DNA of 64,000 nucleotides from Vulcanimicrobiota bacterium (GTDB lineage Bacteria; Vulcanimicrobiota; Vulcanimicrobiia; Vulcanimicrobiales; Vulcanimicrobiaceae), in assembly GCA_003168375.1 (NCBI GenBank), contig PMSI01000003.1, forward strand, positions 124,001-188,000. The letters run 5' to 3'. The notes under the pieces were generated by a model, which had not been told where the DNA came from, ran no database searches, and was given only the letters and a program-made list of their open reading frames with translations. The position numbers and the translations under genes are program-made. Of the stretch, positions 19,194 through 31,809 are shown in pieces. Every line of letters begins with the position of its first letter. Within the stretch, counting starts at the first letter, position 1.

Positions 19194-22100
19194 CTAGGCG
19201 CGCGCGATCAGGACGGCGCGCGCGTGCGCGCCGCGGTCGCCGAGGTTCGTCACCGTGAACTCGCGCGTGAGCTGCGAGATCAGGAACAAGCCCCGGCCGG
19301 ACTCGGCGTCGTGCGAGGGGCGCGCCGTGCGCATCGCGTAGCCGGGGCCGCCGTCGACGACGCTCAGCACGGGTGCAGCGGGATCCTCCCAGTTCACCTC
19401 CACGTCGATCGCACCGCGCGCGTACCGGACCGCGTTTCCGACGAGCTCGCCGAAGACGACCTCCGCAGCCCGGACGTCGACGTCGCGGCCGAACGAGCCG
19501 AGCGTCTCGACGAGCGCGTCGCGGACCTCATAGGTGCGGCGGGCCTCGCGCGGGTCGAAGCGCCAACGCAGCGTCCACCCGGGCGCAGTGGCCGGCGCGT
19601 CGGAGACGCGCATCGTGAGAACGGCGACGTCGTCGCGCACGCCGTCGTCCAGCACGCGCGCGACCAGCGAGGCCGCCGGCGCGTTGGCCTCCGCGACGGT
19701 GCGATCGTGCAACGCGGCAAAGACGCGGCGCTCGCCCTCGGCGATGTTGCGCGTCGACTCGACGAGACCGTCGGTGAAGAAGACGACCAGCGACGCGGGC
19801 GGCAGCACGATGCTGGCCGCCGCCGGCTGATAGCCGTCGCGCAATCCGAGCGGAAGGCCGCGTCCCGGCAGTTGACGCGTCGTGCCGTCCGGCGCTCGCA
19901 CGATCGGCGTCGGATGGCCCGCGGTCGCGTACGCGAGGGTGCGCGCTGCCCGGTCGACCACGCCGACCAGCGCGGTCACGATCGCGTCGGGATGGGCGCG
20001 GCGCAGTACCTTGTCGGCGGCGTCGAGCAGTCGGCCCGGATCCGTCTCGTAGGTTGCGAGCGTCTCGATCGCTTGGCGCATCCGGCCCATGATGACCGCG
20101 GCGGTGAGCCCGCGACCGGTGACGTCGCCGATCGACACGACGACGCGCCCGTCGGGAAGCGCGATCGCGTCGTACCAATCGCCGCCGATCTCCGCCTCGG
20201 TCGCACCCGGGAAATACACTGCGTCGAACGTGAGCCCGTCGACGGCGGGAAGGATCGCGGGCAGCATCGCGCGCTGCAGCGTCACGGCGACGCGATGCTC
20301 TCGTTCGTACAGCTGGGCGTTCTCGATCGCGACCGAGGCGCGCGTGGCGAGTTCGCCGAGCAGCGCGGCGTCATCGGGCGAGAACGCCGCGCGCCCGCGC
20401 AGCGTCAGGCTGCCCAGCTCGACGTCACGGTGGCGCAGCAGGACGCGCACGCTGGAGGCGTCGGCATCGAGCTCCGCGCGCCTGCGTACGACCGCGCGGT
20501 CGGGATTGAGCGCGATCGTCACCTCGTCCGCGAGCTCGGCGATCAGCACGTCCGCGAAGCGGCCGAGCAGCACGCCGAGATCGAGCGAGCTGGTCAGCAC
20601 CTCGCTCGCGCGCGCGATGATCTCGCGCATTCGCGCGAGCCGGCGCTCCTCACCGTAGAGCCGCGCGTTGTCGACGGTGACGGCGGCGCGCTTCGCGAGC
20701 AGCTCGGCCAACTGCACCTCATCGGGGCCGAGCGGTCGCGAGGGTCCGGCTGAAAGCAGCGTGATCGCTCCCAGCACGCTGCCGCGCGCGACGAGCGGAG
20801 CGATGATCAGCGACCGCGCGTCGAGTTTGGTCCAGCGCTCGCCCTCGAGTCGAGGCTGGAACATCGGTTCACCCGTGGCGATCGCGACGGCGACGTCACG
20901 CCGCAGCACGCTGGCGTCGTCGGCGACCGTTGCGTGGCGCGCAGGGTCGGCGTGCCACGCCGCGACCAAGCGCGGCTTCCCGTTGCGATCGCGCAGGTGG
21001 ATCAAGCAGACGTCGGAGCAGCACCCGGCGGCGAGTTCGGCGAGCGCCGGCAGCGTGCGTTCGACGTCGAGCGACGCAGCCAAAATCTCACCGGCATCGG
21101 CGAGCAGGCTATGCTGCTTCTCGATCGCCTTCCGCTCGGTCACATCCGTGAACATCCCCAACGATCCGGCGTACGCGCCGCCCGGGTCGAATAGCGGGTT
21201 GGACGCGACCATCGCCCACACGGCACGGCCATCCTTGTGGATCAGGCGCAGCTCGCCGCGGTACCCGGCTTGCGTCTGGTGTTGGGCGAGCTCGCGCCGT
21301 ACCTCTTCGCGCTCGGCGGGCTCGATGAAGTCGAAGATGCGCCGGTCGTACATCTCGTCCGGCTCGTAGCCGAGGATCTCCGTCAGGCGCGCGTTGACGT
21401 AGCGCGTGCGGTGGTCGCCATCGACGATCCAGACGCCTTCCTGTGCCGTGTCGATGATCCCGCGATAGCGTGCCTCGCTGGCCGCCAAGTCGCGGTACAG
21501 CCGCGCGTTGGCGAGCGCGACCGCGGCGCGCCGCGCGACTTCCTGCGCGTCGACGAGATCAGCTTGCGAGAAGCTGCGCCCCGTCCCGGCCGCAGCCCCG
21601 AACGTCAGCACGCCGACGCGCTCGCCGGCAGCGATCATCGGGACGTAGGCGATCGACGCCAGCGGCAGCGTGCTCACGAACGCGAAATGCTGCTCGCTCC
21701 ACGTCGTCGAGCGCAGCCAGGCCTCGTCACAGTTCGCGACGATCATCGGCTTGCCGGTGCTCAGCACGACGTTGATCGGATGCTGGCGCGCCTCCGGCGG
21801 TGGAGCGAATGTCCGCAGCGGCTCGCCGTCGGATGCCAGCCGTCCGGCGTCGACCGCGATGCGTTCCAGCCGGCCGTCGGCGTCGAAGGCGTCGACGAAC
21901 GCGAAGTCGGCGAAGTCTTCGCACATCGCCGACACAACGGTGCGCGCCGTGCGCTCGTACTCGAGCGATTCCGCGAAGGCGAGGCCGAGCCGGTCGAGCA
22001 TCGCGCGGCGCTGGGTGGCGCGATACTCGTCGTCAACGTCGGTGCTCGTCCCGTACCAGCGGACGATCGCGCCGTTCTCGTCCCGCACGGCGACGGCGCG

Positions 22101-22748
22101 TAGGACGAACCAGCGATACACGCCGTCGTGGCGCCGCAGCCGGTACGGCCGCTCGGGTCCGACCGCGCCGGCATCGGCCGCCGCGGTCCAGCGGGCAACG
22201 GCCTCGGCAGCATCGTCCGGGTGCAGCGCTTGCCCCCAGCCCGTGCCGAGCGAGTCCTCGAACGACGCGCCGGTATATTCGAGCCAGCGCCGGTTGACGT
22301 GCACGGCGTTGCCGTCGGCGTCGCTCGCCCAGACGAGTTGCGGGATGGAGTCGGCGAGCATCGCCAGCGCCTGCTCGGCGTTCCGGCGCTCGTCGACCGG
22401 CAGGACGGTGCCGTACCAGCACGTCACCTCGCCGTGCGCGCCGAGCGCGGGCACCGCGTGCGAGATCACCCAGCGGTACTCCCCGTCACGGTCCCGGATG
22501 CGGAACTCACTGCGGAACGGCGTCACCGCGGTCATCGCCTGCAGCCAGGCGTCGATCACCCAGCCGGCGTCGCTCGGATGGAGCACGTCGGCCCAGCCAC
22601 GCTCGAGCGCCATCGCTACCGGGACGCCGGTGAACCGTTCCCACGCGCCGTTCGCGAACGCGATCGTGCCGTCGGGGCGCGCGACGTACAGGATCGCCGG
22701 CGCGTGTTCCAGCAGCGCGCGCAGGTCGACGCCGGTCGTCTCGATCAG
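19194..22748 (-). CDS. Multi-PAS/GAF sensor with SpoIIE (PP2C) phosphatase and HATPase domains
   Basis: This long cytoplasmic signalling protein has PAS, PAS, GAF, PAS, GAF and GAF domains. A SpoIIE-type phosphatase (GGDWYDAIALPDGRVVVSIGDVTGRG) and an RsbW-like histidine-kinase ATPase (FGELVGNAVRYA, VDGGPGYAM) follow. Such proteins control anti-anti-sigma (STAS) proteins in partner-switching pathways, and one protein here combines phosphatase and kinase modules. The first ATG is at 22613, but PAS-like coding (LEHAPAILYVARPDGTIAFANGAWERFTG) continues upstream with no ATG, GTG or TTG before an in-frame stop. I therefore chose the CTG at 22748, which has GAGGG 10 bases before it. That start is uncertain. 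The gene follows malate synthase by 27 bases. Confidence 0.85.
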   Translation of the reverse strand: MIETTGVDLRALLEHAPAILYVARPDGTIAFANGAWERFTGVPVAMALERGWADVLHPSDAGWVIDAWLQAMTAVTPFRSEFRIRDRDGEYRWVISHAVPALGAHGEVTCWYGTVLPVDERRNAEQALAMLADSIPQLVWASDADGNAVHVNRRWLEYTGASFEDSLGTGWGQALHPDDAAEAVARWTAAADAGAVGPERPYRLRRHDGVYRWFVLRAVAVRDENGAIVRWYGTSTDVDDEYRATQRRAMLDRLGLAFAESLEYERTARTVVSAMCEDFADFAFVDAFDADGRLERIAVDAGRLASDGEPLRTFAPPPEARQHPINVVLSTGKPMIVANCDEAWLRSTTWSEQHFAFVSTLPLASIAYVPMIAAGERVGVLTFGAAAGTGRSFSQADLVDAQEVARRAAVALANARLYRDLAASEARYRGIIDTAQEGVWIVDGDHRTRYVNARLTEILGYEPDEMYDRRIFDFIEPAEREEVRRELAQHQTQAGYRGELRLIHKDGRAVWAMVASNPLFDPGGAYAGSLGMFTDVTERKAIEKQHSLLADAGEILAASLDVERTLPALAELAAGCCSDVCLIHLRDRNGKPRLVAAWHADPARHATVADDASVLRRDVAVAIATGEPMFQPRLEGERWTKLDARSLIIAPLVARGSVLGAITLLSAGPSRPLGPDEVQLAELLAKRAAVTVDNARLYGEERRLARMREIIARASEVLTSSLDLGVLLGRFADVLIAELADEVTIALNPDRAVVRRRAELDADASSVRVLLRHRDVELGSLTLRGRAAFSPDDAALLGELATRASVAIENAQLYEREHRVAVTLQRAMLPAILPAVDGLTFDAVYFPGATEAEIGGDWYDAIALPDGRVVVSIGDVTGRGLTAAVIMGRMRQAIETLATYETDPGRLLDAADKVLRRAHPDAIVTALVGVVDRAARTLAYATAGHPTPIVRAPDGTTRQLPGRGLPLGLRDGYQPAAASIVLPPASLVVFFTDGLVESTRNIAEGERRVFAALHDRTVAEANAPAASLVARVLDDGVRDDVAVLTMRVSDAPATAPGWTLRWRFDPREARRTYEVRDALVETLGSFGRDVDVRAAEVVFGELVGNAVRYARGAIDVEVNWEDPAAPVLSVVDGGPGYAMRTARPSHDAESGRGLFLISQLTREFTVTNLGDRGAHARAVLIARA

Positions 22749-24780: not shown

Positions 24781-24857
24781 GCGCCCGTAGCTCAACTGGA
24801 TAGAGCGAGGCACTCCTAAGGCCGAGGTTGGCGGTTCAAGTCCGCCCGGGCGCACCA
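24781..24857 (+). tRNA. tRNA-Arg (anticodon CCU)
   Basis: The acceptor GCGCCCG pairs with CGGGCGC. The anticodon loop CTCCTAA reads CCU, the T-arm is GGCGGTTCAAGTCCGCC and CCA is encoded. The anticodon stem is imperfect, with mismatches at its outer and inner ends. The gene lies antisense to the end of the decayed LrgA/LrgB frame. Confidence 0.88.
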
Positions 24858-25496
24858 CATCCTCTGCCGCTGCGCGGACGCGGCGCGCGCCGGAGCTAAG
24901 CGTCCGGCTGCAATTCCTTCGCTGCCGAAGATGCGCAGCGGCAGCGGTGCGAAGGCTGAGGTCAGGATCGCGCCGATGCCCAGCGAGACGCCGGCGACGG
25001 CCCCGGAGAGCTCGCTCTCGGTCGCGGCTTGCGCGGTGCCGAAGCCTGCGGCAAGCGCGGGATCGCCGTGCACGATGCGGGCGACTTCGATCGCAATCGC
25101 CGTCGTGGTCGACTTCGCCGCGAGCGTCGCTTCGAGAAGTTGTCCCAGCCGGAACGCGTGCGCGCAGACGATCGCGAGCGCCACCGTCGCCGGGCCGAGC
25201 AGGAAGGTCATGAACGTCTTCTCCGGCTCGTATGCGTCGACGTCGATGCGCACCAGCAGCAGCAGGGCGACGACGACAAAGCGGTACGCGCCGATCGTGA
25301 GGACGATAGCGCCGACCGTGAAGACGATCAGGCCGATACCCGCGCCGGCGCGCGCGAACGTCGCGCCGAACCCCATCACGCCGACGGTGACGGGAACGAA
25401 GAAGAAGGCGAGGTGCTTCGTCAGGAAGCCGCCGCCGAGCTCCAGCCATTCGATCTTGATCGCCCCTGCGGCGAGCGCGCCGAACAGCGATAGCAT
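24816..25496 (-). pseudogene. Decayed LrgA/LrgB (CidA/CidB) fusion
   Basis: The first half matches the middle and end of an LrgA/CidA holin-like protein (SLFGALAAGAIKIEWLE, KHLAFFFVPVTVGVM). The second half carries LrgB pieces: LLGPATVALAI, AKSTTTAIAIEVARIVHGDPALAA and FGTAQAATESELSGAVAGVSLGIGAILTSAF. The LrgA N-terminus is missing, and the LrgB pieces are brought together with the intervening sequence lost. The frame then runs into sequence antisense to tRNA-Arg before stopping. Several hydrophobic segments remain. These losses suggest a fused LrgAB membrane transporter that decayed, though a shortened functional protein cannot be excluded. Confidence 0.6.
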
Positions 25497-25608
25497 CGGA
25501 CGAGGGGCGAGCCGACACAGCCGGTTAACAAAGGCTTGCTTGGATTTTTACTGTGGCTAACGCGCGAGAAGGCCGCTTACCCGGCTCGCCCGACCGATAG
25601 AGTAGTGG

Positions 25609-27411
25609 ATGGAAGCTGACGAACTGGCGGCGCTCACCGCGCAGATGTCCGTGGCGATCGACCACCTGCGCGGAATCACGAAGGAGATCGCCGCGAACGC
25701 ACGCCAGCAGGCGGCCTCCCTGCGCGAAGTCGTCGAGACGACGCAGGAGGCCTCGCGCGAGCTCGCCGCCACGATCGGCGTGGTCCGTGCGGTCCGCGAC
25801 GACGTCGCCGATGCGAACTCCTCGCTCGGGATCGCCTCCGCCCAAATCGCCCAGCTTACCCAAGCCGTCGACCGGCTGGCCGAGCAGAGCCGGGCCGGCG
25901 CCGAAGCGATCGAGCAGCTGCTCGGCGTCAGCACCAGGATCAGCGAGGCGGTCGCGTTCGTCGAGGATGTTTCCCAGCAGACGAACCTGCTGGCGCTCAA
26001 CGCGTCGATCGAAGCGGCGCGCGCCGGCGTCCATGGGCGCGGCTTCGCCGTCGTCGCGGCGGAGATCCGCAAGCTCGCCGACTCGACTCGCACGGCGACT
26101 TCGCAGATGAACATGCTCTTGCGTGAGATCTCCGCCAAAGCGGTCAACGCGACCGACGTCGCGCGCGGAACGGAAGACGCCGCGCAGCTCGGCGCCGGTG
26201 CGTCGTCCGTTGCGGAGCAGGCGCTGGCGTCGATCGCCTCGGCCGTGGGGAGCGTCGCCGCGTCGTTCGAACGTGTCGATCGCACGATCGCCGCGCAAGC
26301 ATCGAGCACCGAAGAGCTCGAACGCGCGTCGCGCGGCGTCCTTGAGATCTCGCGCTTGCATCATACCGCCGCCGCCGAGAGCACGCTCTCGGTCAACGCG
26401 CTGGCCCACCACTTGAAACGGCTCACCAGCAGCGTCACATCGGCGCCGATCGTGCGCCGTCCCGACGTCCTGCGCGTCGCGACGATCTTGAACGATTCTC
26501 CGTCGGCCGCCGCCTGGCAGCGTTTCGCCTCGCTCGTGCGCGAGCGCACCGGCGGGGCGATCTCCGTCGAGCTCGAGATCCCGTACACCGGCAAGGGCCG
26601 CGGCGAGGTCAACGCGTTCGACGACCTGATCTCGGGCGAGCTCGCGCTGGCCTCGGTCGCGAGCTCGGTCGCGGGGAACGTCGTGCCGGCGGCGCAGCTG
26701 CTGGAATTGCCGTACCTGTTCGACAGCCCCGAGCACGCCGTCGCGGTGCTCGACTCGCCAGCGGGCCAAGAGATCCTCGACGATGCGGCCTCGGTCGGCC
26801 TCCTCGCGTGCGGCTACATGGAAAACGGGATGCGGCACTTCACCAGCAACGTGCAGCCGATTCGCGCGCCGGAGGACCTGCGCGGGCTGCGGTTGCGCGT
26901 GATGGAAGCGCCGGTCTACCTGTACTTCGCCGAAGCGCTCGGCGCGATCGCGACGACGTCGCCGTATTTCAAACTCGCCGACGCGCTGCGCAGCGGCGAT
27001 GCGCAAGCGCAGGAGAACCCGCTGATCAACATCCGCGGCCTCGACCTCCCGCGCGTCCAGCGGTATCTGACGCTGAGCGGGCACACCTACACGCCGCAGA
27101 TCGTGTTCGCCAACCCCGCGGCGATGGAGGCGCTCGGCGCACATCGGCCGGCCGTGGAGGAGGCGCTACGCGAGGCGATCGCGTGGCATCGCACGCGGGC
27201 GCGCGAGATGGAGCGTGAGGCGCTGGCCTGGCTGCGCACGCGGATGGAGATCACGGAGCTCAGCGCTTCGGAGCGCGAAGCGTTCCGCGCGGCGACGGCG
27301 GAGTCGGTCGACCGGCACATCGACCGGCTGGTCGGCGGGCGGTGTGCGAAGCTGCGCCGGGCGGCCACGGCGCTGCGCGGCGCGCGCGGAATGTCGGCTG
27401 TTCGCGCGTAG
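25609..27411 (+). CDS. Soluble chemoreceptor (MCP) signalling domain fused to a TRAP (DctP-type) solute-binding domain
   Basis: Residues 1 to about 275 are the coiled-coil signalling domain of methyl-accepting chemotaxis proteins. The kinase-control tip reads [22 protein letters not shown] (119-140), with [16 protein letters not shown] after it. Residues about 285-520 match the DctP family of TRAP periplasmic binding proteins: [27 protein letters not shown] and [18 protein letters not shown], with the ligand-binding arginine at about 430. There is no signal peptide and no transmembrane segment, so the sensor module should lie in the cytoplasm. A small ligand inside the cell may be sensed. No cheA or cheW gene is visible nearby. 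Both family assignments are strong. Confidence 0.88.
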
Positions 27412-27427
27412 CGAACGTCCGCGCACC

Positions 27428-27598
27428 TTGGACGACTCCGACCGGCGCTCGACGGAGCGCGAAGAGCGCCGCCGCAGCGACCGGCGGCGATCGCAAATCA
27501 GCATCTTCATTGAACGCCGTCTGGGCGATCGCCGCCGCGTACAACGCCGGCTGGTCGACGTCTTCCGGTCGTTCCTGGGACTGCCGCCGCTCGCGTGA
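27428..27598 (+). CDS. Arginine-rich small protein (56 aa) coupled to the diguanylate cyclase
   Basis: A TTG-initiated frame encodes a short, strongly basic protein with repeated ERR and DRR motifs (SDRRRSQISIFIERR, GDRRRVQRR) and a hydrophobic end. Its TGA overlaps the GTG start of the downstream diguanylate cyclase. This favours a real gene with translational coupling. It could bind nucleic acid or lipid head groups, but no family was recognised. Confidence 0.5.
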   Translation: MDDSDRRSTEREERRRSDRRRSQISIFIERRLGDRRRVQRRLVDVFRSFLGLPPLA

Positions 27599-29271
27599 TC
27601 GCTCGCCGCGCGTACTTGACCGTTCGCACCGCTTCGCTGCTCGCGGCGGCGGTCTCGATCGTACTCTGGGGATCCGCGGCCGTGCGGGCGCTCCGTCCGG
27701 ACGATCTCGCCTTCCTCCTGGGAGCGCTCGCCGTCACGCTGGCGCTCGGCTGGCTGCGCGCGCCCGCCGCCCATTTCGAGCGCAGCCGCCGGCCGACGCC
27801 CGAGAGCGACCGCGTCGGGCTGCTCGTCCCGCTGATCGTCGCTGTGCTCGCGCACGAGGGCTGGTTCTGGGCCGCTTGCTGCGCGCTGGTCGCGCAGCTC
27901 GTCCGGCCGCAGGGCCTGCGGCGCCATCCGTTCCCGGAGCGGCTGCTCACGGCGACGCTGCGCTTCCCCGCGCTCGCCGCTGCGGCGATCGTCGCCGGGC
28001 CGCTGCAGCGAGCCGCCGCGGTGACGCCGTCGATGGCGGCGCTGGCGGTGTTCGCCGCCATCGCGGCGACGTACGTCCTCGCGGTCGATCTGCTGTGGCT
28101 GGATCCGCTGATCGCGCTGCGCCAAACGCGCTCGCTGCTGCGCATCTGGCGACGGCATCTGGCCGACGGCGCGACCGTGCTCACCATCCTGGTCGAGACG
28201 TGCTGGGCGTACGGCGTCGCGCACGTCGCCGCCGCCGAGGGCGCGTTCCTCGGCGTCGCGCTGATGCTGCCGCTGGTGTTGATCGGAGCGCTGCTGCACC
28301 GGCTCGCACGCGCCAACGCGCGAGTGCATCGGCTCGCGCTCTCGCGCCAAGCCGTCGACGCGATGCTGCACGCCACCGATCCGCAGCCGCAGCTGCGATC
28401 GCTGCTCGAGTCGATCGACCCGCGGATCGTGCGCGAGTCGCTCGAGATCGCCGCGTTCGGGCGCGGGGGCACCGACCGGTGGTCGCGGTTGATGCGCTTC
28501 GGTGCGCCGGTCCCGGGCGACCTCGAGCGGCTCGGCGGCCGGGCGTTGCTCGAGGTCCAGGTGACCGGTGAAGACGTCGTGATCGAGCGCGAAGAGCACG
28601 GTTCGGTCCACGCGTATGCCGCCAACGACGCGGACGGCGGGCTGCGGGGTGCAATGGTCGTGTTCCGCACGCCCGAAGATGCGCCGCTCGTCGCATCGCG
28701 CGACTACGAGCGTGCCGCCGCGGAGATCGGCCCGCTGCTCGGCGAGTACGGCGCGATCGCCGCGACGCGGACCTTGGCGAGCATCGACACGCTGACCGGG
28801 CTGCCGAACCGCCGCGGGGTCGCTCGCGCGCTCGACGAGGCGATGACGCACGTTCGCAGCGGCGGCCGCTACGCGGTGCTCCTGCTCGACGTCGACCACT
28901 TCAAGTCGATCAACGACCTGCTCGGCCACCAGAGCGGCGATCGCGCCCTGGCGCAGATCGGCCGGATCATCGCCCAGAACGTCCGAGGCGTCGACGCCGC
29001 CGGCCGTTTCGGAGGCGAAGAGTTTCTCGTGCTGCTGCGCGACGCGTCACGCGAGCGCGCACTCCAGGTCGCCGAGCGCCTGCGCGGAGCGATCGAAGCG
29101 GGCGGCCTCGCCTATGCCGACGGCAAGCCCGTCACGGTCTCGGTCGGGGTCGCCTATGCGCGCTCGGCCGACGGCATCGGCGACGTGGTCGAGCGTGCCG
29201 ATCGCGCGCTCTACCGGGCGAAGAACACCGGCCGTAACCGGGTCGTCGAGTCTCCGCTCGTCGCGGTGTAG
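27595..29271 (+). CDS. Membrane diguanylate cyclase (GGDEF)
   Basis: The first 230 residues or so carry about six hydrophobic segments, forming a membrane sensor of unknown type. A linking region is followed by a GGDEF domain that begins at DTLTGLPNRRG. It has the substrate-binding VDHFKSINDLLGHQSGD and the active signature GGEEF. An RxxD inhibitory site (RGVD) lies five residues before it. The domain should make cyclic di-GMP with product feedback. The gene starts with GTG inside the end of the arginine-rich frame. It ends tail-to-tail with the CPXCG gene with no base between the stops. Confidence 0.9.
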   Translation: MIARRAYLTVRTASLLAAAVSIVLWGSAAVRALRPDDLAFLLGALAVTLALGWLRAPAAHFERSRRPTPESDRVGLLVPLIVAVLAHEGWFWAACCALVAQLVRPQGLRRHPFPERLLTATLRFPALAAAAIVAGPLQRAAAVTPSMAALAVFAAIAATYVLAVDLLWLDPLIALRQTRSLLRIWRRHLADGATVLTILVETCWAYGVAHVAAAEGAFLGVALMLPLVLIGALLHRLARANARVHRLALSRQAVDAMLHATDPQPQLRSLLESIDPRIVRESLEIAAFGRGGTDRWSRLMRFGAPVPGDLERLGGRALLEVQVTGEDVVIEREEHGSVHAYAANDADGGLRGAMVVFRTPEDAPLVASRDYERAAAEIGPLLGEYGAIAATRTLASIDTLTGLPNRRGVARALDEAMTHVRSGGRYAVLLLDVDHFKSINDLLGHQSGDRALAQIGRIIAQNVRGVDAAGRFGGEEFLVLLRDASRERALQVAERLRGAIEAGGLAYADGKPVTVSVGVAYARSADGIGDVVERADRALYRAKNTGRNRVVESPLVAV

Positions 29272-30088: not shown

Positions 30089-30847
30089 TCACCACGCTAT
30101 ATCGCGTTCTGCCTCACCCAGGGTCCATTCGACGAGCGCGCGGGCATTCATAAGTACCGCAAAGGCGGGCTCTTTTCCAACAATCTCCGGCTCGTTGAAC
30201 GCTACATTGAAGATTTGGAACACGTTGGGCTCCGGTTCTCCAACGCACCATCGGGCGATTACTACGTCTTTTTCCAGGCTTTGCCAGTCCCCACGCTTGG
30301 CGCTGAATTGGATCACACGCGCTGCTTCAGGGCCGATACTGTCTGCCGCCCCAAAGATACCTGTGGTCAAAAGTGCGCGGTGCTTGTCCGTAACGTCAAG
30401 ACGATGCAGGGTCCAGAAATAGCCAATTCCATCATCTCCCGCATATGGCTTCAAACTCCTGATAAATGCTTCACCGGCAGGTCCCAAAACTCGTATCTTT
30501 CCCTGCGTACCGGAATGATTGAACACTTCTCTCGACTTACAGATGGGGAACGCAATGTTTTCCAGGCGAGTGTTCGGATTGTGCCGCAAAGCGATGGCGC
30601 ACGCGAGATGATCGAGCGCGGAGCGCAGATTATGAACAGCGTCGCCTACGATTGCTATAACTGGACTTGGAATAATCGGGGTATGATATTGAATCTTCAG
30701 GATTTCGTGCAGTCCATCGGGCTCTGTCTCTTTGACGACCGTGTAACTGTCGGCAGCGAAGGTTGTCTGAACCCAAGCTCCAAACTCGAAGATGTGCTTG
30801 TCGGCCCGTTCTAGCTTCGCCCATGCACTCTGAAGCTGCGGAATCAC
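30089..30847 (-). CDS. Passenger protein with a GD-x-HNLRSALDHL motif, coupled to the transposase
   Basis: The 252-residue protein contains IVGDAVHNLRSALDHLACAIALR, a motif of a widespread uncharacterised family. The rest is soluble, with no signal peptide. Its GTG start overlaps the TGA of the transposase by 4 bases, so it is translated from the transposase message. It may serve the element or its host. No catalytic role is apparent. Confidence 0.65.
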   Translation of the reverse strand: MIPQLQSAWAKLERADKHIFEFGAWVQTTFAADSYTVVKETEPDGLHEILKIQYHTPIIPSPVIAIVGDAVHNLRSALDHLACAIALRHNPNTRLENIAFPICKSREVFNHSGTQGKIRVLGPAGEAFIRSLKPYAGDDGIGYFWTLHRLDVTDKHRALLTTGIFGAADSIGPEAARVIQFSAKRGDWQSLEKDVVIARWCVGEPEPNVFQIFNVAFNEPEIVGKEPAFAVLMNARALVEWTLGEAERDIAW

Positions 30848-31809
30848 GCCTTGGCGATCAGGCTCTTGTACGTCAACCGCTTTCCGTCTGCGCCTTTTAC
30901 CGCTTTCGCAAAGCGCGGCCCGTCCGTGTTTTGCCGCTCGTCAAAGCGATACACTTGCTCGGAGAGGTAGCGGTCCAGGTGACGCGGGTTGACGTGAATG
31001 TACGTCCCGCCGATGGTGCGCTTGAGCACGGCCCAAAAGCACTCGATGTTATTCGTGTGGACGTTCCCGCGAACGTACTCTTCGATGGAGTGATTCACCG
31101 ACGAGTGCGTCATAAAGTATTCGTTTATGTGCGTGTAGAGGTTCGACGCGTCGGTGTAGACCGTAGCGTCGTGGTGAATGCTATCGCGCATCTTCGGAAG
31201 CAGCGTCTTGTGCGACACGTCGCCCGGAATCTTCCAGGCGCGGACACGCCCGCCGCGTTCCACCATGCCGAACACCGCGGTTTTCTCGTCGCGGGGGTCG
31301 TTCGTCATGCCACGCGCTTCGCGGCGCTCGCGCAATTCGCGGCGCTTGGCCAGGGACTTGTTATGGTGCTTGCCGCCGATGTACGCCTCGTCCATTTCGA
31401 CGGTCCCGGTGAGCATGTCGAACGCGTCAGATTGCATGGCCTCGCGGATGCGGTGAAGCATGAACCAAGCCGTCCGCTGGGTGACCTTCAGCCCCCGCGC
31501 GATCTCGTAGGACGAGATGCCGTTACGGTTGCTTGCGATGAGCCAAAAGGCGGGAAGCCACTTGTCGAAGCCGATGGGCGAATCTTCAAAGACCGTCCCG
31601 AGCTTGGCCGTAAACTGTTGCTTGCACTCGTTGCAGTACCAGCGCCGACGTTTCGGCATATAGGCGACCGCAGCCGACCCGCAGCCCATCCGAGGGCACG
31701 CGACACCATGCGGCCAGCGGAGCTGGACGAAGAAGTCGTGCGCGACCTGCGGATCGGCGAACTGCCTGACCGCTTCGAGCATCGTGTCGGGAAGGGGCTG
31801 CTTGTCCAT
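30844..31809 (-). CDS. IS1595-family (ISXO2-like) transposase
   Basis: The 321-residue DDE transposase has an N-terminal zinc-binding region (ACPRMGCG, then WYCNECKQQF), a helix-turn-helix (GISSYEIARGLKVTQRTAWFMLHRIREAM) and the catalytic core. The core has VEMDEAYIGGK, YTDASNLY and a region with HTNNIECFWAVLKR containing the glutamate. The gene is complete and lies 23 bases inside the right end. Its 3' end is coupled to the passenger gene. Confidence 0.92.
   Translation of the reverse strand: MDKQPLPDTMLEAVRQFADPQVAHDFFVQLRWPHGVACPRMGCGSAAVAYMPKRRRWYCNECKQQFTAKLGTVFEDSPIGFDKWLPAFWLIASNRNGISSYEIARGLKVTQRTAWFMLHRIREAMQSDAFDMLTGTVEMDEAYIGGKHHNKSLAKRRELRERREARGMTNDPRDEKTAVFGMVERGGRVRAWKIPGDVSHKTLLPKMRDSIHHDATVYTDASNLYTHINEYFMTHSSVNHSIEEYVRGNVHTNNIECFWAVLKRTIGGTYIHVNPRHLDRYLSEQVYRFDERQNTDGPRFAKAVKGADGKRLTYKSLIAKA

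What the first reader, a model, noticed from the sequence alone, without database searches (positions are those of the whole stretch)
25609..27411. Soluble chemoreceptor fused to a TRAP (DctP) solute-binding domain
An intact MCP signalling hairpin (residues 119-140 and neighbours) is joined to a C-terminal DctP-like binding domain with its arginine and [11 protein letters not shown] region, without signal peptide or membrane helix. DctP proteins normally work outside the cytoplasmic membrane. A cytoplasmic binding protein on a chemoreceptor would imply sensing of an internal carboxylate or other metabolite. I know of no common receptor built in this order.
Basis: partly seen in the sequence, partly recalled or inferred. 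Interest (0 to 1): 0.72.

Follow-up and report, generated by a model that had tools for sequence, protein, structure and literature searches.

The report
Chemoreceptor with an internal acid sensor
A bacterium of the phylum Eremiobacterota has a soluble chemotaxis receptor whose sensor is a solute-binding domain that normally works outside the cell membrane, so it probably steers swimming by an organic acid already inside the cell; its relatives have also joined the same internal sensor to double-headed receptors and to DNA-binding regulators.

Summary
The 600-aa ORF at 25609-27411 joins an MCP signalling hairpin (E 4e-29) to a complete DctP domain (E 1e-53). It has no signal peptide or membrane helix, and an in-frame stop two codons upstream rules out a longer N-terminus. 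AlphaFold2 gives a hairpin (3-138/140-277) and a well-predicted DctP fold (Z 39 to sugar-acid-binding DctPAm) that keeps the carboxylate-binding arginine (R430).

It is not a one-off. Thirty full-length MCP-DctP matches lie in 28 of 149 genomes of the phylum (Eremiobacterota/Vulcanimicrobiota), all in one family. They include a paralogue in the same genome and double-headed MCP-DctP-MCP forms. Three more proteins carry a MarR DNA-binding domain on the same kind of DctP; these must be cytoplasmic, and two sit in ABC-transporter operons. All the fused DctP domains form one clade (100/100), separate from every secreted DctP compared. No fusion turned up in the other phyla sampled, nor in the literature searched.

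The host genome has one CheA, one CheW, CheR, CheB, CheY and flagellins. Best reading: a cytoplasmic chemoreceptor sensing an intracellular carboxylate. Neither ligand nor signalling has been tested.

The parts
25609..27411 (+). Complete MCP-DctP gene (600 aa, ATG to TAG)
   Evidence: coding-like codon GC and no hydrophobic segment; purifying selection
25603..25605 (+). In-frame TAG stop two codons before the start: excludes a longer N-terminus
   Evidence: read directly
25615..26022 (+). N-terminal helix of the MCP hairpin (residues 3-138)
   Evidence: AlphaFold2 model; MCPsignal match 80-243
25966..26073 (+). Hairpin tip (residues 120-155), the CheA/CheW and trimer contact region in known receptors; canonical except V141 where ARAGE usually has E
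26026..26439 (+). C-terminal helix of the MCP hairpin (residues 140-277), running back to the base of the hairpin
26440..26457 (+). Short linker (residues 278-283) between hairpin base and sensor domain
26458..27387 (+). DctP (family 7 solute-binding) domain, residues 284-593
   Evidence: Pfam; PDB sequence; AlphaFold2; Foldseek; VIA-align
26896..26898 (+). Codon of R430, at the position of the conserved carboxylate-binding arginine of TRAP solute-binding proteins (SiaP Arg-147)
   Evidence: Invariant in A1, nearly invariant in 55 rows; aligned with solved DctP proteins; role of the arginine: PMC4646407
27010..27021 (+). QENP motif of the DctP core (residues 468-471)

Best explanation
A cytoplasmic chemoreceptor. 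Dimers of the long helical hairpin are expected to join, through the conserved tip, the chemosensory array that contains the genome's single CheA and CheW. A DctP 'Venus flytrap' sits at the other end of the hairpin, joined by a six-residue linker to the C-terminal helix, where ordinary receptors have HAMP and membrane segments. A carboxylate inside the cell, probably a small organic or sugar acid, is held by R430; closure of the flytrap would change the packing of the C-helix and so CheA activity, CheY-P and flagellar rotation. Shown here: the architecture, the fold, the absence of a membrane or signal segment, the conserved arginine, the family and its single DctP lineage, the full Che set. 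Inferred: location inside the cell (strongly), array membership, ligand class, direction of signalling.
For: ORF and upstream stop; both Pfam domains; no hydrophobic segment. Two-helix hairpin and DctP domain with pLDDT mostly 85-98; Z 39.2, rmsd 1.9 over 305 residues to DctPAm. R430 and QENP conserved. Family of 30 full-length fusions in 28 genomes. The same DctP lineage is also fused to MarR winged helices, which must meet DNA, in one 100/100 clade with the receptor forms. Two MarR-DctP genes head HAAT/Liv-type ABC transporter operons, as expected of a sensor of an imported compound. Single CheA and CheW, CheY, a CheC-like protein and FlhA beside them (named by reading the translations), CheR and CheB, three flagellins. 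dN/dS near 0.29.
Against: No ligand, location or kinase measurement exists. Canonical methylation sites were not found by eye in the hairpin. The gene neighbourhood is not conserved in G008, so context says nothing about the ligand. A close relative (G004) keeps only codons 478-600 of the gene, so it is dispensable there, unless that is an assembly fault. Tip residue V141 departs from the usual glutamate.
Confidence: 0.72

Rival explanations
1. The DctP domain no longer binds a small molecule and serves as a structural part, for instance to pair receptors or to space two array layers, as suggested by the double-headed forms.
For: Double-headed MCP-DctP-MCP forms are more numerous than single ones and resemble the array scaffold DosM of Vibrio cholerae (PMC7534058). 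The N-terminal tip of the double-headed forms is altered: ETQ, GLG, EVG in place of QTN, GRG, EVR.
Against: R430, QENP and the hinge regions are conserved across all forms; a spacer need not keep them. DctP on MarR has no array to scaffold. The window's own protein has one head.
Confidence: 0.13
2. The DctP domain senses a protein partner, such as a transporter subunit or its state, and not a free metabolite.
For: Solute-binding proteins dock on membrane partners and on receptors in other systems (PMC9602780). The genome has three TRAP DctM subunits.
Against: TRAP SBPs dock on the outer face; this domain has no route there. No transporter gene lies next to the gene.
Confidence: 0.08
3. The protein, or its DctP half, is exported and acts outside the membrane.
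For: Every DctP outside this clade that was examined is secreted.
Against: No signal peptide, no hydrophobic segment, upstream stop. MCP tips work with cytoplasmic CheA/CheW. The same DctP clade carries MarR DNA-binding domains.
Confidence: 0.03
4. An artefact: mis-assembly or a chance frame joining two neighbouring genes.
For: In a few genomes MCP and dctP genes are neighbours, e.g. Treponema saccharophilum.
Against: The same junction is found full-length in 28 independent genomes, with purifying selection over both halves.
Confidence: 0.01

Closest known systems
TRAP transporter solute-binding proteins, DctP family (e.g. DctPAm 7bco, 4p47, 4pdh; SiaP)
   Same: Whole fold, conserved carboxylate-binding arginine, QENP and ENGxRHxT motifs; about 30% identity.
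   Different: No signal peptide; fused to a signalling hairpin; no TRAP membrane genes beside it; forms a separate clade from secreted relatives, including those of the same phylum.
Cytoplasmic (membrane-free) chemoreceptors such as TlpD, HemAT and the PAS-bearing soluble receptors (from memory)
   Same: Soluble receptor with a standard hairpin tip; TlpD-type receptors also carry their sensor C-terminally.
   Different: The sensor here is a large two-lobed solute-binding domain, not CZB, PAS, GAF or globin.
DosM of Vibrio cholerae (double signalling domain receptor; PMC7534058)
   Same: The relatives MCP-DctP-MCP have one signalling domain at each end of a soluble protein.
   Different: A DctP domain lies in the middle. 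The window's protein has one head only. No F9 system or triple CheW was looked for in relatives.
Solute-binding-protein-like sensor domains in other sensors (from memory, e.g. Venus-flytrap histidine kinases, LacI-type regulators; general remark in PMC9602780)
   Same: A transport-type binding fold reused as a sensor.
   Different: A DctP-type domain in a cytoplasmic chemoreceptor or on a MarR wing was not found described in the searches made.

Membership tests
Methyl-accepting chemotaxis protein (chemoreceptor) | MCPsignal domain with the conserved hairpin tip | tested here: met
   PF00015, E 4.4e-29; tip aligned with T. maritima and E. coli receptors; other fusions
Methyl-accepting chemotaxis protein (chemoreceptor) | Long antiparallel helical hairpin | tested here: met
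   Helices 3-138 and 140-277, monomer model with pLDDT about 70-85 there
Methyl-accepting chemotaxis protein (chemoreceptor) | Partner proteins CheA and CheW in the same genome | tested here: met
   One CheA, one CheW; CheR, CheB; CheY by reading the translation
Methyl-accepting chemotaxis protein (chemoreceptor) | Methylation sites used by CheR/CheB | tested here: inconclusive
   No canonical site seen by eye; consensus varies between classes
Cytoplasmic chemoreceptor | No transmembrane helix and no signal peptide | tested here: met
Cytoplasmic chemoreceptor | Located in a cytoplasmic or membrane-associated array | not testable with these tools
   needs microscopy or cryo-electron tomography
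DctP family TRAP solute-binding protein | DctP fold | tested here: met
   Pfam; Foldseek E 3.6e-25; Z 39
DctP family TRAP solute-binding protein | Conserved arginine that holds the ligand carboxylate (96.8% of the family, PMC4646407) | tested here: met
   R430
DctP family TRAP solute-binding protein | Export signal and work outside the cytoplasmic membrane | tested here: not met
   no signal peptide or hydrophobic segment, upstream stop
DctP family TRAP solute-binding protein | Companion DctQ/DctM genes | tested here: not met
   none adjacent; the genome's three DctM genes lie elsewhere. DctQ was not searched
DosM-type double signalling domain receptor | MCP domain at both ends | tested here: not met
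   The window's protein has one; its relatives L049, L053-L059 have two

The most novel reading that the evidence does not exclude
A solute-binding domain of the TRAP type was taken into the cytoplasm once in the Eremiobacterota and became a portable intracellular acid sensor. It was then moved between single-headed chemoreceptors, double-headed array-spanning chemoreceptors and MarR-type transcription factors, letting these bacteria steer and regulate by internal carboxylate level.
Probability: 0.55. Interest if true: 0.75.

Novelty: new variant of a known kind. Interest (0 to 1): 0.62.

Why it matters
DctP proteins are textbook extracytoplasmic parts of TRAP transporters. A lineage that lives inside the cell and drives chemotaxis and transcription would add a sensor type to cytoplasmic chemoreceptors, whose ligands are mostly unknown. 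It would also give a directly testable case of swimming steered by an internal metabolite: the domain is soluble, of a well-studied fold, and has one diagnostic arginine to mutate. The MCP-DctP-MCP relatives would add a double-headed receptor with an identifiable sensor in the middle.

Tried and rejected
Missed upstream start: rejected, in-frame stop at 25603. Chance fusion or mis-assembly: rejected by 28 genomes. Ligand from gene context of the window (malate synthase, LrgAB, GGDEF): rejected, because the G008 orthologue has none of these neighbours, and the neighbours of the other fusions looked at are unrelated to each other. Plasmids: no record covering 80% of the query among 4754 with a match. 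34 genomes of other phyla: no listed match spanning both domains, though the listing was cut. 398 Pseudomonadota genomes: none at E 1e-75, with only three candidates scored in each genome shown. These searches are samples and do not prove absence. Literature: no paper found with both terms; the library lacks most subscription papers, including the main reviews of cytoplasmic chemoreceptors. A tree of the MCP halves shows separate groups for single, N-terminal and C-terminal heads, but it was a quick tree with long branches and partly wrong automatic labels, so it is used only lightly.

Full report
What is there. The window carries a 600-residue ORF at 25609-27411 (+). The in-frame codon TAG at 25603-25605 closes the frame two codons before the ATG, so the objection of a missed start is excluded. 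Pfam finds MCPsignal (80-243, E 4.4e-29) and DctP (296-570, E 1.3e-53). No window of 19 residues reaches hydropathy 1.6. The closest solved structures by sequence are DctP proteins such as 4p47 and 4pdh, and for the hairpin the receptors 6s18 and 2ch7.

Structure. AlphaFold2 with a 55-row alignment built from the window and from loci of the genome scan gives mean pLDDT 85.6: helices 3-138 and 140-277, then a DctP fold from about 284, mostly pLDDT 85-98. Foldseek ranks 4p47 first (E 3.6e-25); VIA-align gives Z 39.2, rmsd 1.9 over 305 residues to the sugar-acid binder DctPAm. The domain is joined where the C-helix returns to the base of the hairpin, the place taken by HAMP and membrane segments in ordinary receptors (inference from the model and general knowledge). 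The arginine that holds the ligand carboxylate in TRAP solute-binding proteins, present in 96.8% of the family (PMC4646407), lies at R430, and is invariant or nearly so among relatives. Its equivalence to SiaP Arg-147 rests on alignment with solved DctP proteins, not on a superposition with SiaP itself.

Family. The own genome holds a second MCP-DctP (39% identity). Among relatives there are three designs: MCP-DctP (G008 at 77%, G007, G001, G005), MCP-DctP-MCP of about 880-980 residues (eight shown, more), and MarR-DctP (L050, L051, L060). A profile of the fusion run over 149 genomes of the phylum gives 30 full-length matches in 28 genomes, all in one family, plus a fragment in a second family (G040) and a few partial matches. 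The DctP profile shows a clear gap between the fused domains (E 1e-94 or better) and secreted ones (E 6e-60 or weaker). Contig titles name the group as Candidatus Eremiobacterota, placed in Vulcanimicrobiota.

One internal lineage. In a maximum-likelihood tree of 83 DctP domains the 32 fused ones (7 single, 22 double, 3 MarR) lie on one side of a branch with 100/100 support and length 0.84, apart from 51 secreted ones, including 16 of the same phylum; the double-headed and MarR groups are each 100/100. The single-headed group is not resolved as one clade. The tree is unrooted and some branches are long, so a single move inside the cell is the simplest reading, not a proof. MarR-DctP proteins must act on DNA, which is the best available evidence that this DctP lineage works in the cytoplasm. 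Two of them are followed by a Peripla_BP_6 binding protein and Liv-type permeases, as expected of a regulator that senses an imported compound.

The chemosensory setting. The genome has exactly two CheW-domain hits, a CheA and a CheW, adjacent. Around them the translations read as a CheY, a CheC-like protein, a PilZ-like protein and FlhA (named by reading, not by a profile search). CheR and CheB and three flagellin hits lie elsewhere. There are eight MCP domains in seven ORFs, two of these ORFs being MCP-DctP. With one CheA, this receptor has only one kinase to talk to. The hairpin tip is nearly canonical; V141 replaces the usual glutamate of ARAGE in the window protein and in G008. In the double-headed relatives the N-terminal tip is altered (ETQ, GLG, EVG) while the C-terminal one keeps [16 protein letters not shown], which suggests that the two heads are not equivalent.

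Selection. Against G008, dN/dS is about 0.29 overall, 0.26 for the MCP half and 0.32 for DctP, and about 0.14 over the tip. Both halves are maintained.

Function. I take it to be a cytoplasmic chemoreceptor for an internal carboxylate. The closest solved proteins bind organic and sugar acids, so an acid of that kind is the first guess; the identity is unknown. Array membership and the effect on CheA are inferred. The main rival is that DctP is a structural part, given DosM, the double-headed scaffold of V. cholerae (PMC7534058); conservation of R430 in all designs, MarR fusions included, speaks against it.

Novelty. The kinds of parts are known and a soluble receptor with a C-terminal sensor is known, so I file it as a new variant of a known kind. 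No MCP-DctP protein was found in plasmids, in 34 genomes of other phyla or in 398 Pseudomonadota genomes, and no paper was found with the relevant pairs of terms. These searches are samples with stated limits.

Noticed in passing
L049, L053-L059 (relatives G005, G020, G003, G036, G019, G022, G033, G018): Double-headed soluble receptors MCP-DctP-MCP, about 880-980 aa, with non-equivalent hairpin tips; AlphaFold2 of L066 gives long helical segments on either side of a DctP domain.
   Followed up: yes
L050:8575-10005, L051:7675-9156, L060:8165-9715: MarR winged helix fused to the same internal DctP lineage; in L050 and L051 followed by Liv/HAAT-type ABC transporter genes.
   Followed up: partly
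L185:3548-6172 (-) (G000:C6, about 443.5-446.2 kb): A soluble receptor of about 875 aa in the own genome with two MCP domains and no DctP.
   Followed up: no
L062:7021-7389 against window 24857-27040: In relative G004 the region from near tRNA-Arg to codon 477 of the MCP-DctP gene, with LrgAB, is missing, leaving a 123-codon remnant between malate synthase and GGDEF: recent deletion or assembly fault.
   Followed up: partly
24781-25496: tRNA-Arg (24781-24857) overlaps the end of a short LrgA-LrgB-like ORF (24816-25496, -), whose Pfam match is partial: possibly a decayed gene beside a tRNA.
   Followed up: no
19194-22613 (-): 1139-aa PAS/GAF sensor with SpoIIE phosphatase and a HATPase_c_2 domain (anti-sigma-factor-like kinase).
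   Followed up: no
27595-29271 (+): GGDEF protein directly downstream on the same strand; link not conserved in G008.
   Followed up: partly
30844-31809 (-): IS1595-type transposase.
   Followed up: no
H1, NZ_AP025289.1 46879-48784 (Treponema saccharophilum plasmid): Separate MCP and dctP genes side by side: a possible functional pairing of the two proteins outside this phylum.
   Followed up: no
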